A DNA stretch of 64,000 nucleotides from Xanthobacter agilis (GTDB lineage Bacteria; Pseudomonadota; Alphaproteobacteria; Rhizobiales; Xanthobacteraceae), in assembly GCF_021730435.1 (NCBI RefSeq), contig NZ_JABWGX010000007.1, forward strand, positions 1 through 64,000. Direction: 5' to 3'. This document shows, in pieces, positions 45,459 through 48,391 of this stretch. Below the pieces are notes generated by a model. The model ran no database searches, had not been told where the DNA came from, and worked only from the letters and a program-made list of their open reading frames with translations. The translations under genes and the position numbers were made by a program. Position 1 is the first letter of the stretch; the number at the start of each line of letters is the position of its first letter.

Positions 45459-47867
45459 TTGAACGCTCAGCTCATGCCCTCGAAGTTCACCAACCCGTTC
45501 TTCGCCAAGGTGACGGATGGCAATGCCTGGACCGCGCGCCAGCGCGCTTTGGCCCTGACGGCGCAGCTGTCCGAGTTGTCCACCATGAGCCAGTTGACGT
45601 CCAAGGCTGCCGGACGGCACTTCATGAATATCTCGGCCACCCACGGCGGGCGGCTGCGGGCGACCTTCGACGAATTGACGGCCCTCATGGGCACCATCAC
45701 CAGCACGGAGCGTTCGCTTTCGGACCGGGTGAAGGACGCGCAGGCCTATGTGATCGACCGCACCCAGCGCGCGGTGCTTACCCTCGACACCCTGCGCCAG
45801 CGCGGCGACAATTTCTTCGAGCACGAGGCGGCCGGCTGCCCGCCGGTGCTCATCTATGACTATGACGTGGTCATGGACGGTCGCAGCCTGCCCCGGCCCT
45901 GCAATTACGCCCTGCTGAAGATCAAGCCGCCGGAGGGGGTGGAAGTCTATCCCTGGAAGCGCCCCTATGTGATTATTGACCCTCGCGCGGGCCATGGCGC
46001 CGGCATCGGCGGCTTCAAGTCCGATAGTCAGGTGGGCGTGGCGCTGAAGGCTGGCCATCCGGTCTATTTCGTCAGCTTCAGCCGCAATCCCGAGCCCGGC
46101 CAGACCCTGGCCGATGTGTCGCGGGCCGAAGCGACGTTTGTGCGCTACGTGCAGGAGCAGCATCCGGACGCGTCGAAGCCCGTGGTCATCGGCAATTGCC
46201 AGGGCGGATGGGCGACCCTCCTGCTCGGCGCCGCCAACCCGGACATCACCGGCCCGCTGGTGCTGAACGGCGCCCCGGTGGAGACCTGGTCTGGCGACGT
46301 GGGGGCGAACCCCATGCGCTACAATGCCGGTCTGCTCGGTGGCCAGGTCCAGCCCATGTTCTGGTCCGACTACGGTGACGGCGTGTTCGACGGGGCATCG
46401 CTGGTGCTCAATTTCGAGATGCTGAATCCGGGCCGCACCTGGTTCCGCAAATATTACGACCTGTTCGAGAAGGTCGATACCGAGAGCGGCCGCTTCCTGG
46501 AATTCGAGAAGTGGTGGAGCGGCTTCTTCCTGCTCAACGAGCCGGAGATCGTGTGGATCGTGCGGGAGCTGTTCGTCGGCAACAAGCTGGCGCGCAACGA
46601 GGCGCGGCTGGAGCATGGCCGCGTTCTCGACGTCAAGCAGATCCGCTCGCCCATCATCGTGTTCGCCAGCCATGGCGACAACATCACGCCGGTGAAGCAG
46701 GCGATCAACTGGATCATCGACACCTATGCGGACGAGACGGAAATCCGCATCCGTGGCCAGCGCATCGTCTACATGGTGCACGACAAGGTGGGCCATCTCG
46801 GCATCTTCGTCTCGGCCTCCATCGCCAAGCGCGAGCACACCCAGGTGTCCTCGGTGCTGAAGACCATCGAGGCGCTGGCGCCGGGTCTCTATGAGATGAC
46901 CATTGATGACGTCCGCGGCGAAGGGCAAGACGCGCAGTTCACCGTCTCCTTTGCCGAACGCAAGATGAGCGAGCTGCCCGGCTATGGCGACGGGCGCGAG
47001 GACGAGGTGCCCTTCGCCGCCGTGCAGCATCTCTCCGAGTTGCAGGGCGAGCTCTACGACGTGTTCCTGCGGCCCATGGTGCAGGCGTCGGTGACGCGCG
47101 CGAGCGCGGAGATCGGCCGCATGATGCATCCGCTGCGGGTGCAGCGCGCCCTCACCTCGTCGCGCAATCCGGTGATGATGCCGCTCGAGGCCCTTTCCAA
47201 GGTGGTGAGCGAGAGCCGCAAGCCGGTGGAAAAGGAGAATCCCTTCGTCCTGGCGGAGCGCCTGATGGCCGATGCCTTCGAGCAGACCATCGACGTCGTC
47301 CGCGATATTCGCGACGCCTGGTACGAAGTGACCTTCTATTCCATCTACGCCACGCCCTTCATGCGCTGGTTCGGCCGGAACTACAATTTCGAGCGGACGC
47401 GCAAGACCAAGGAAGAGCTGGTGGGTCTGCCGGAGGTGCGCGCGGCCTTGCTGCACGTCAATTCCGGTGGTTTCGTCGAGGCTGTGATCCGCATGCTGAT
47501 CCTGCTCGCCGATGCCCGCGGCAATGTGCGCCGCGATCGCCTGGAGCGCTCGGCCAAGGTGCTCACCAAGGACGAGCCCTTCCTGTCCCTGCCGGTGGCC
47601 CGCAAGGCGGAGATCATCCACGAGCAGAGCCTGGTTGTGGAATATGCGCGCGAGGCGGCGATCGAGGCACTGCCCGAGATGCTGCGGACTCCGGAGGAGC
47701 GCCGCAAGGCGGCCGAGGTGGTGCAGTTCGTGCCCGGCCCGCTTGAGGAGATGGATCCGCGGACCCTCTCCATGTTGCAGCGCATCCGCCATGTGCTCGG
47801 CCTGGAGCCCGCGACGGCCGACATCGCGCTTGATCCGCTGGAGGTGACCGCGCAAGCGGCTCAGTGA
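45459..47867 (+). CDS. DUF3141 family PhaC-like alpha/beta hydrolase
   Basis: This is a protein of about 800 residues. It has a helical N-terminus resembling phasin/PhaC regions ('ALTAQLSELSTMSQL', 'ERSLSDRVKDAQAYVID'). An alpha/beta-hydrolase core follows with 'YVIIDPRAGHGAGIGG', 'VYFVSFSRNPEPGQTL' and the nucleophile box G-N-C-Q-G-G with Cys, as in PHA synthases. The catalytic Asp lies in 'FASHGDNITP' and His in 'VGHLGIFVS'. A long helical tail makes it DUF3141. Members are annotated as poly(3-hydroxyalkanoate) synthetase-like, but polymerase activity is not shown for them as far as I know. The TTG start at 45459 has GGGGAGG before it; an in-frame ATG lies at 45474. Confidence 0.85.
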   Translation: MNAQLMPSKFTNPFFAKVTDGNAWTARQRALALTAQLSELSTMSQLTSKAAGRHFMNISATHGGRLRATFDELTALMGTITSTERSLSDRVKDAQAYVIDRTQRAVLTLDTLRQRGDNFFEHEAAGCPPVLIYDYDVVMDGRSLPRPCNYALLKIKPPEGVEVYPWKRPYVIIDPRAGHGAGIGGFKSDSQVGVALKAGHPVYFVSFSRNPEPGQTLADVSRAEATFVRYVQEQHPDASKPVVIGNCQGGWATLLLGAANPDITGPLVLNGAPVETWSGDVGANPMRYNAGLLGGQVQPMFWSDYGDGVFDGASLVLNFEMLNPGRTWFRKYYDLFEKVDTESGRFLEFEKWWSGFFLLNEPEIVWIVRELFVGNKLARNEARLEHGRVLDVKQIRSPIIVFASHGDNITPVKQAINWIIDTYADETEIRIRGQRIVYMVHDKVGHLGIFVSASIAKREHTQVSSVLKTIEALAPGLYEMTIDDVRGEGQDAQFTVSFAERKMSELPGYGDGREDEVPFAAVQHLSELQGELYDVFLRPMVQASVTRASAEIGRMMHPLRVQRALTSSRNPVMMPLEALSKVVSESRKPVEKENPFVLAERLMADAFEQTIDVVRDIRDAWYEVTFYSIYATPFMRWFGRNYNFERTRKTKEELVGLPEVRAALLHVNSGGFVEAVIRMLILLADARGNVRRDRLERSAKVLTKDEPFLSLPVARKAEIIHEQSLVVEYAREAAIEALPEMLRTPEERRKAAEVVQFVPGPLEEMDPRTLSMLQRIRHVLGLEPATADIALDPLEVTAQAAQ

Positions 47868-47888
47868 GGACACTCGCCGTGTGAAGAC

Positions 47889-47922
47889 GCAATGCCGCGG
47901 CGCATAAGCGCCGCGGCATTGC
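47889..47922 (+). terminator. Strong hairpin after the DUF3141 gene
   Basis: A perfect 15-base inverted repeat (GCAATGCCGCGGCGC at 47889-47903 and its complement at 47908-47922) surrounds an ATAA loop and is followed by GCTTTC. It separates the DUF3141 gene from the lanmodulin-like gene. Confidence 0.8.
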
Positions 47923-47977
47923 GCTTTCAAGGGGGGCAGCATAGGCTTCCCGAAAATCTGGTTTAGGGGGAGCTTTC

Positions 47978-48391
47978 ATGGCGCGCTCGTTTTTTCGGTT
48001 CGGTGTTGCAGCGGCGGTTGCCGGGGTGCTGGCCTTCGCGCCATCGGCCATGGCCGCGATGTCCGGCAAGGACGCGCTTGCCAAGCTCAACAAGGATGGC
48101 GACGACACCCTGGAGATCGTCGAGGTGATCGATCTCGGCACCCAGACCTTCAAGGCCATCAACAAGGATCATGACACCACCTTGGAAGCCCCGGAGACCA
48201 AGGGGCGCCTGACGCCCGAGGACTGGGCGCTGGTCAACAAGGACGGGGACCAGACCTTGGAGCTCGACGAGTGGCTGACGATTGTCCGCTCCCGCTTCAA
48301 TGCGGCCGACGCGAACAAAGACGGCAAGCTGACCGCGGCGGAGCTTGATTCCGAGCCGGGCCAGAAGCTGCTTCTGCTGATCGTGAAGTGA
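47978..48391 (+). CDS. Periplasmic four-EF-hand protein, lanmodulin-like
   Basis: This 137-residue protein has a signal peptide (cleavage after A-M-A, residue 26) and four EF-hand loops at residues 38-49, 62-73, 87-98 and 111-122. They read N-K-D-G-D-D-T-L-E-I-V-E, N-K-D-H-D-T-T-L-E-A-P-E, N-K-D-G-D-Q-T-L-E-L-D-E and D-A-N-K-D-G-K-L-T-A-A-E. The gaps between loops are only 12, 13 and 12 residues, the unusual compact spacing of lanmodulin. 'KGRLTPEDW' between loops 2 and 3 and the 'R-F-x-A-A' before loop 4 also align with lanmodulin. It lacks lanmodulin's Pro at loop position 2 and Asp at position 9. Metal preference (rare earth, calcium or other) cannot be told from sequence. Confidence 0.85.
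   Translation: MARSFFRFGVAAAVAGVLAFAPSAMAAMSGKDALAKLNKDGDDTLEIVEVIDLGTQTFKAINKDHDTTLEAPETKGRLTPEDWALVNKDGDQTLELDEWLTIVRSRFNAADANKDGKLTAAELDSEPGQKLLLLIVK

What the first reader, a model, noticed from the sequence alone, without database searches (positions are those of the whole stretch)
47978..48391. Lanmodulin-like protein with altered EF-hand loops
Seen: a signal peptide, four EF loops and gaps of exactly 12, 13 and 12 residues between loops, plus matching linkers. Known: lanmodulin of methylotrophs has this compact spacing and binds rare earth ions with very high selectivity, helped by Pro at loop position 2. Here position 2 is Lys/Lys/Lys/Ala, position 1 is Asn in three loops, position 6 is Asp/Thr/Gln in three loops, and position 9 is Glu in those loops. 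This could be a lanmodulin branch with different metal choice.
Basis: partly seen in the sequence, partly recalled or inferred. Interest (0 to 1): 0.82.

Follow-up and report, generated by a model that had tools for sequence, protein, structure and literature searches.

The report
Hans-type lanmodulin from a Xanthobacter
This is a small secreted protein that very probably holds rare-earth metals for a methanol-eating bacterium; it belongs to a lanmodulin group described in 2023, and its one unusual trait is that none of its four metal loops has the proline thought to help reject calcium.

Summary
In detail: the 137-residue ORF at 47978-48391 has a signal-peptide-like start and four EF loops spaced 12/13/12, with loop residues as listed. 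The interpretation, a lanmodulin branch with different metal choice, is right in kind, but the branch is already known: the Hans cluster (Mattocks 2023, PMC10232371), which the paper says includes Xanthobacter. Closest solved proteins are Ancylobacter lacus 9pi2 (E 7e-46) and Hansschlegelia quercus 8dq2 (4e-44); Mex-LanM lies at 4e-14. A tree puts it in a fully supported Hans clade, and the AlphaFold model matches 8dq2 at Z 20.1, 1.3 A. N1, E9 and non-Gly position 6 are cluster features: the side-chain La ligands of EF1-3 and the Arg100 dimer network are conserved. The genome, a Xanthobacter species, has two XoxF-type and one MxaF-type dehydrogenase, a lut-like cluster and a TonB receptor near it. 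What differs is EF2: Lys for Pro at position 2 and His for Gly at 4, so no loop has P2, a proposed lanmodulin hallmark. P2-free forms make up 7 of 66 family sequences, this one included. Predicted: a dimerising light-lanthanide binder; calcium discrimination is the open question.

The parts
47978..48391 (+). lanM, Hans-type lanmodulin, 137 aa
   Evidence: Translation; PDB matches; tree; fold
47978..48055 (+). probable signal peptide, residues 1-26, ending A-M-A
   Evidence: Seen in the translation; residues 9-23 have low confidence in the model; the 8dq2 chain aligns from residue 28
48089..48124 (+). EF1 loop NKDGDDTLEIVE
   Evidence: N38, D40, D42, E46, E49 equal the side-chain La ligands of Hans EF1; the backbone ligand S40 there is T44 here
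48161..48196 (+). EF2 loop NKDHDTTLEAPE: ligand set kept, Pro2 to Lys, Gly4 to His, Pro at position 11
48236..48271 (+). EF3 loop NKDGDQTLELDE, with D97 (= Asp93 of Hans)
48287..48289 (+). Arg104 codon, equivalent of Hans Arg100, which anchors the light-lanthanide dimer
   Evidence: role in Hans-LanM from PMC10232371
48308..48343 (+). EF4 loop DANKDGKLTAAE, identical to the weak EF4 of Hans-LanM
47888..47923 (.). perfect 16-base-pair inverted repeat (loop ATAA) between the upstream DUF3141 gene and lanM; possibly a terminator (only TTT follows), which would leave lanM transcribed on its own
   Evidence: Read directly in the sequence; no terminator scan or fold run
45459..47867 (+). upstream neighbour, DUF3141 protein; found next to lanM only in L012 of 18 related loci

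Best explanation
A periplasmic lanmodulin of the Hans cluster. Shown: homology, fold and complete conservation of the side-chain ligands and dimer residues. Inferred: the largely unfolded apo-protein is exported and binds light lanthanides (La to Nd) in EF1-3 through N1, D3, D5, the carbonyl of residue 7, E9 and E12, ten-coordinate and without water; binding folds the three-helix bundle, and Arg104 of one monomer locks D89/E95/D97 at EF3 of the other, giving a dimer that favours light over heavy lanthanides; EF4 is a weak site. In the cell it would buffer or pass lanthanides between outer-membrane uptake, the XoxF methanol dehydrogenases and the lut-like inner-membrane transporter. Lack of Pro at position 2 in all loops most likely leaves lanthanide affinity intact and may raise the response to calcium.
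For: Best solved relatives are lanmodulins: 9pi2 7.3e-46, 8dq2/8fnr 3.7e-44, then Mex-LanM 4.1e-14 and 5.1e-14; the next is calmodulin at 0.0089. The Hans clade, 19 of 19 rows, is one side of a branch with support 100/100. Model (pLDDT 84.1) against 8dq2: Z 20.1, 1.3 A over 110 residues, 70% identity; the best non-lanmodulin has Z 7.7. Every side-chain La ligand of Hans EF1-3 is identical; residue 7, a backbone ligand, is T where Hans EF1 has S. The four-residue dimer network is identical (D89, E95, D97, R104), and EF4 is 12/12 identical. Purifying selection, dN 0.06 against dS 0.90-1.81. Genome: two dehydrogenases with the XoxF Asp (WDYDGVNE), one MxaF-type (WDYAGVN); on one contig with a xoxF: a methanol-metabolism cytochrome, a MoxJ-like protein, lut-like TIGR03863/03864/03861/03866 genes and a TonB receptor. 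Across 296 genomes of the family, 60 of 63 with a lanmodulin (E up to 1e-6) also have the TIGR03863 gene (E up to 1e-60) against 63 of 233 without (Fisher p 3e-24, not corrected for phylogeny).
Against: No binding data. The P2 hallmark is absent. It scores 99 bits on NCBI's lanmodulin model, below the 135-bit cut-off. Hans-type lanM genes lie apart from the lut-like cluster (0 of 11 genomes within 40 kb, though 8 of the 11 have the two genes on different contigs), so linkage gives no support. lanM deletion in Methylobacterium aquaticum 22A and M. extorquens PA1 gives no methanol growth defect (PMC9260416 passages), so the cellular role is unproven even in the model species.
Confidence: 0.9

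Rival explanations
1. A lanmodulin whose loss of P2 (plus His4 in EF2) has weakened the barrier to calcium, so that it answers to both Ca and lanthanides and acts as a mixed sensor or buffer.
For: No Pro at position 2. In Mex-LanM, Pro-to-Ala at position 2 is reported to cut selectivity over Ca while keeping lanthanide affinity (stated in PMC12603986, passage). Hans-LanM, with a single P2, answers to Ca with Kd,app 60 uM (PMC10232371).
Against: All side-chain lanthanide ligands and the dimer network are kept; Hans-LanM answers to Ca only weakly although it already has Lys at position 2 of EF1 and EF3.
Confidence: 0.2
2. An ordinary calcium-binding EF-hand protein of the periplasm.
For: Pfam families over their cut-off are only the generic EF-hand_1 and EF-hand_6.
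Against: 12/13/12 spacing; lanmodulin crystal structures at Z 18-20 against at most 7.7 for non-lanmodulins; place inside the lanmodulins, away from seven of eight hand-picked outgroup EF-hand proteins, the eighth (L066) being a very long branch of unsure place.
Confidence: 0.03
3. A decaying, non-functional lanmodulin copy.
For: One relative, Ancylobacter crimeensis, has a ruined EF1 loop (L021/L050), so decay does occur in the cluster.
Against: dN/dS about 0.07 (NG86) or 0.03 (YN00) against L012, and an intact ORF with all side-chain ligands.
Confidence: 0.02

Closest known systems
Hans-LanM, Hansschlegelia quercus (PDB 8dq2, 8fnr; Mattocks 2023)
   Same: 77 of 110 mature residues; all EF1-3 side-chain ligands; Asp/Glu/Asp/Arg dimer network; EF4 identical; fold
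   Different: EF2 P59 to Lys and G61 to His; Pro at EF2 position 11; S40 to T in EF1
Ancylobacter lacus lanmodulin (PDB 9pi2, La-bound)
   Same: Closest solved relative by sequence (E 7.3e-46); same loop pattern (N1, E9 in EF1-3; L019/L047)
   Different: Keeps Pro at EF2 position 2; its Pro11 is in EF1, not EF2
Mex-LanM, Methylorubrum extorquens (6mi5, 8fns)
   Same: Same fold (Z 18.1 to 8fns)
   Different: 35% identity; Asp1/Pro2/Gly6/Asp9 in EF1-3 against Asn1/Lys2/Asp-Thr-Gln6/Glu9; the 2023 paper reports two waters per site in Mex and none in Hans
Lanmodulin of Xanthobacter oligotrophicus 29k (L045, same as L016)
   Same: Hans-type; also without any Pro at position 2 (Ala in EF2)
   Different: Groups with P2-bearing L015 and X. 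autotrophicus sequences, so its loss looks independent

Membership tests
Lanmodulin (hallmarks proposed in PMC10232371) | Four EF-hand motifs | tested here: met
Lanmodulin (hallmarks proposed in PMC10232371) | Adjacent EF hands 12-13 residues apart | tested here: met
   12, 13, 12
Lanmodulin (hallmarks proposed in PMC10232371) | Pro at position 2 of at least one loop | tested here: not met
   Position 2 is K, K, K, A. The paper collected its 696 sequences by the first two hallmarks and a length limit, so this one did not bound its set
Lanmodulin | Three-helix bundle with peripheral EF sites | tested here: met
   Model against 8dq2, 8fnr, 8fns: Z 20.1, 18.5, 18.1
Lanmodulin | Picomolar lanthanide binding and selectivity over Ca | not testable with these tools
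   Needs purified protein
NCBIfam NF053806 lanmodulin LanM | Score over the curated cut-off of 135 bits | tested here: not met
   99.2 bits, nearly full length. All 16 Hans-type members scanned match the model, best E 2.2e-33 (bits shown only for the window protein)
Hans cluster of lanmodulins | At least 65% identity to a cluster member, apart from Mex-type | tested here: met
   70% to Hans-LanM over 110 residues; 71-72% to two X. autotrophicus sequences; clade support 100/100. The network itself was not rebuilt
Hans cluster of lanmodulins | N1, D3, D5, E9, E12 in EF1-3 | tested here: met
Hans cluster of lanmodulins | Arg100-Asp85-Glu91-Asp93 network, said to be fully conserved in the cluster | tested here: met
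   R104, D89, E95, D97; these four columns are invariant in the 12- and 16-row alignments
Hans cluster of lanmodulins | Light-lanthanide-dependent dimer | not testable with these tools
   Only a monomer was modelled
Calmodulin-like calcium EF-hand protein | About 25 residues between EF hands and calmodulin fold | tested here: not met
   Spacing 12/13/12; by sequence calmodulin reaches only E 0.0089, by Foldseek 0.015 or worse

The most novel reading that the evidence does not exclude
A natural lanmodulin that keeps picomolar, light-lanthanide-selective binding with no position-2 proline at all, having replaced its role by the all-protein Asn1/Glu9 coordination sphere, the dimer lock and perhaps Pro at position 11 of EF2; or, in the other direction, one whose EF2 (Lys2, His4) has shifted metal choice. 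Independent P2 losses in Xanthobacter would make it a ready-made natural experiment on what P2 does.
Probability: 0.45. Interest if true: 0.45.

Novelty: new member of a known kind. Interest (0 to 1): 0.3.

Why it matters
Lanmodulins are used to separate rare earths, and Hans-LanM separates light from heavy ones better than Mex-LanM (PMC10232371). This gene adds a P2-free member of that cluster. Together with L012 and X. oligotrophicus it allows a clean test, in natural sequences, of whether the position-2 proline is needed to reject calcium. For the genome it marks a probable lanthanide-using methylotroph with both XoxF- and MxaF-type dehydrogenases.

Tried and rejected
Calcium-binding or calmodulin-like protein: tested by sequence, tree and fold, rejected. 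Decaying copy: rejected by dN/dS. A new branch of lanmodulin: rejected, the sequence falls inside the Hans clade.

Claim that Mex-type lanM is always linked to the lut-like genes: a first table with 30 hand-picked genomes suggested it. The full table of the 60 genomes with both genes corrected it: Mex-type 20 of 49 within 40 kb, 8 on the same contig but farther, 21 on different contigs; Hans-type 0 of 11 near, 3 far, 8 on different contigs. Only the 3 Hans and 28 Mex same-contig cases are informative (Fisher p 0.04).

Linkage of this lanM to lanthanide genes: 14 proteins of the xoxF/lut-like contig were searched against the window and against 18 related loci (L041-L055 with up to 6 kb of flank, L012, L015, L020 with 1.5 kb); nothing matched except two weak ABC-ATPase resemblances in the window. 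Conserved neighbours of the window lanM were found only in L012, apart from one 24% match of a short-chain dehydrogenase in L051.

Tree: the outgroup rows were 8 of the 19 non-Hans loci, chosen by hand; of the unnamed Hans-type loci only the three without a named twin were used; the tree is rooted at the midpoint and the program warns of long branches. 9pi2 did not appear in the fold library's results.

Literature: lanmodulin with Xanthobacter gave one paper; lanmodulin, Hans-LanM, second position and proline, at least three of four, gave four papers, of which I saw passages of two besides PMC10232371 and none of PMC11845868 (one search failed); LanM with lanthanide and Ancylobacter gave one paper. 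In what I saw no lanmodulin without any P2 is described; the library lacks most subscription journals and no supplement was read. No paper from 2025 on with both 'Ancylobacter lacus' and 'lanmodulin' was listed (10 of 44 listed, two-term papers come first).

L116 (26% identity) is probably not a lanmodulin proper but was kept in the counts. L110 was not counted in the 66 because its EF1 has Ala at loop position 8, which the script's pattern excludes; read by eye it has 12/13/12 spacing and Pro at position 2. Many of the 66 are near-copies from one genus.

Full report
The ORF at 47978-48391 on the + strand encodes 137 residues. Its four EF loops are NKDGDDTLEIVE, NKDHDTTLEAPE, NKDGDQTLELDE and DANKDGKLTAAE with gaps of 12, 13 and 12 residues. 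The N-terminus looks like a signal peptide ending in A-M-A; no signal-peptide program was at hand.

What it is. By sequence the best solved proteins are the La-bound protein of Ancylobacter lacus (9pi2, E 7.3e-46) and Hans-LanM of Hansschlegelia quercus (8dq2 and 8fnr, 3.7e-44), then Mex-LanM (8fns 4.1e-14, 6mi5 5.1e-14); calmodulin follows at 0.0089. NCBI's lanmodulin model covers residues 9-135 at 99.2 bits, under the 135-bit cut-off; all 16 Hans-type sequences scanned match that model, best E 2.2e-33, and 9 of 16 also touch a transaldolase model, far below its cut-off for the one whose score is shown. One outgroup row, L066, is a very long branch whose place is unsure. The AlphaFold model (pLDDT 84.1, pTM 0.74, 16 sequences) aligns to 8dq2 over 110 residues at 1.3 A, Z 20.1, and to 8fns at Z 18.1; the best non-lanmodulin chain has Z 7.7. 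Foldseek likewise ranks the four lanmodulin entries first.

Organism. The genome has 66 contigs and 4.81 Mb. Five other genomes of its genus have the gene on contigs of the same length as named Xanthobacter records that bear the same gene (346104, 166034, 5392410, 197278 and 244149 bases; X. autotrophicus DSM 432 and AM5, Xanthobacter sp. YC-JY1, X. aminoxidans, X. oligotrophicus). So the window comes from a Xanthobacter species in the broad sense (inference).

How it works. Mattocks and others (PMC10232371; I read the sections on selectivity and on the structural basis of dimerization, the first of two parts of the Extended Data text, and passages elsewhere; [quoted passage not shown] In La-bound Hans-LanM, EF1-3 are ten-coordinate through N1, D3, D5, E9, E12 and the carbonyl of residue 7, with no water; EF4 shows no La and was modelled with Na; Arg100 of one monomer contacts Asp85, Glu91 and Asp93 of the other at EF3 and supports a dimer that La favours over Dy. 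In the window protein every side-chain ligand is identical (N38, D40, D42, E46, E49; N62, D64, D66, E70, E73; N87, D89, D91, E95, E98), residue 7 is T in all three loops, the dimer network is identical (D89, E95, D97, R104), and EF4 is 12/12 identical. Hence the inferred behaviour: three light-lanthanide sites, metal-driven folding, a lanthanide-size-sensitive dimer, and a weak EF4. None of this has been measured for this protein.

What differs. EF2 has Lys at position 2 where 16 of 19 distinct Hans-type sequences, Hans-LanM among them, have Pro, and His at position 4 where Hans-LanM has Gly. With Lys, Lys and Ala in the other loops there is no P2 anywhere. P2 in at least one loop is one of the proposed hallmarks of lanmodulin, though the authors collected sequences by the other two. 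PMC12603986 (passages) lists P2 in 3, 2 and 1 of 4 loops for three published lanmodulins besides Mex-LanM, which has 4 of 4, and states that Pro-to-Ala changes in Mex-LanM lower selectivity over Ca but not lanthanide affinity. In my sample of the family, 66 of 67 matches fit the script's 12/13/12 pattern and 7 of these 66 have no P2: the window, L012, L016 (X. oligotrophicus 29k), L036, L102, L109 and the doubtful L116. The window and L012 share Lys2; X. oligotrophicus has Ala2 and groups with Pro-bearing sequences, so at least two losses in Xanthobacter are likely. The window and L012 EF2 loops also carry Pro at position 11, which the other Hans-type EF2 loops seen here lack; whether it compensates is speculation. 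The gene is under purifying selection between the two genomes (dN 0.06, dS 0.90 by NG86 and 1.81 by YN00).

Genome context. The genome has four PQQ-alcohol dehydrogenases. Two carry the XoxF-type Asp (WDYDGVNE), one the MxaF-type Ala (WDYAGVN), one neither (WDFTATQ) (the meaning of this residue is recalled knowledge). On the contig of one xoxF lie a methanol-metabolism cytochrome, a MoxJ-like gene, a CXXCW protein and genes matching TIGR03863, TIGR03864, TIGR03861 and TIGR03866, all over their cut-offs, which I equate from recalled knowledge with the lut transporter of M. extorquens (PMC9260416 passages mention that cluster). The barrel match of a TonB-dependent receptor starts about 5 kb beyond that xoxF. 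lanM itself stands on another contig, behind a DUF3141 gene and a 16-base-pair inverted repeat, and the DUF3141 setting was found only in L012 among the 18 loci compared. In 296 genomes of the family, 63 have a lanmodulin (E up to 1e-6) and 123 the TIGR03863 gene (E up to 1e-60; 114 over the curated cut-off); 60 have both (p 3e-24, not corrected for relatedness; the three without it are 60-89% complete). In the genus, 9 of 14 genomes have a lanmodulin, all 9 with the TIGR03863 gene; of the other 5, 2 have it. Within 40 kb of that gene lie 20 of 49 other lanmodulins and 0 of 11 Hans-type ones.

Verdict. A real, intact, conserved lanmodulin of a known cluster. The P2-free state is the part worth a measurement. 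Membership: it meets the tested features of the Hans cluster and the first two lanmodulin hallmarks; it does not meet the third.

Noticed in passing
L050:5875-6288 (same protein as L021), Ancylobacter crimeensis 6x-1: A Hans-type lanmodulin whose EF1 loop is ruined (GKKPTDTLTVQE) while EF2-4 are intact: a natural lanmodulin short of one strong site.
   Followed up: no
Genomes G000, G192, G041, G130, G160, G113, G145, G073, G094, G233, G252: Hans-type lanM lies within 40 kb of the TIGR03863 (lutA-like) gene in 0 of 11 genomes (8 of them have the two on different contigs), other lanmodulins of the family in 20 of 49.
   Followed up: partly
G241, G204, G131, G162: Four genomes of the family have two lanmodulin matches each.
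   Followed up: no
G000:C9 (L075, L076), G000:C6 (L077), G000:C65 (L078): Two XoxF-type dehydrogenases in one genome, one on a contig with a lut-like cluster and a TonB receptor, besides an MxaF-type one on C65 whose neighbours look like other mxa genes by eye (not scanned).
   Followed up: partly
NCBIfam NF053806: The curated lanmodulin cut-off (135 bits) is above the score of this Hans-type protein (99 bits); with a best E of 2.2e-33 among the 16 scanned, the others probably miss it too, so such genes would be annotated only as EF-hand proteins.
   Followed up: partly
   Followed up: no
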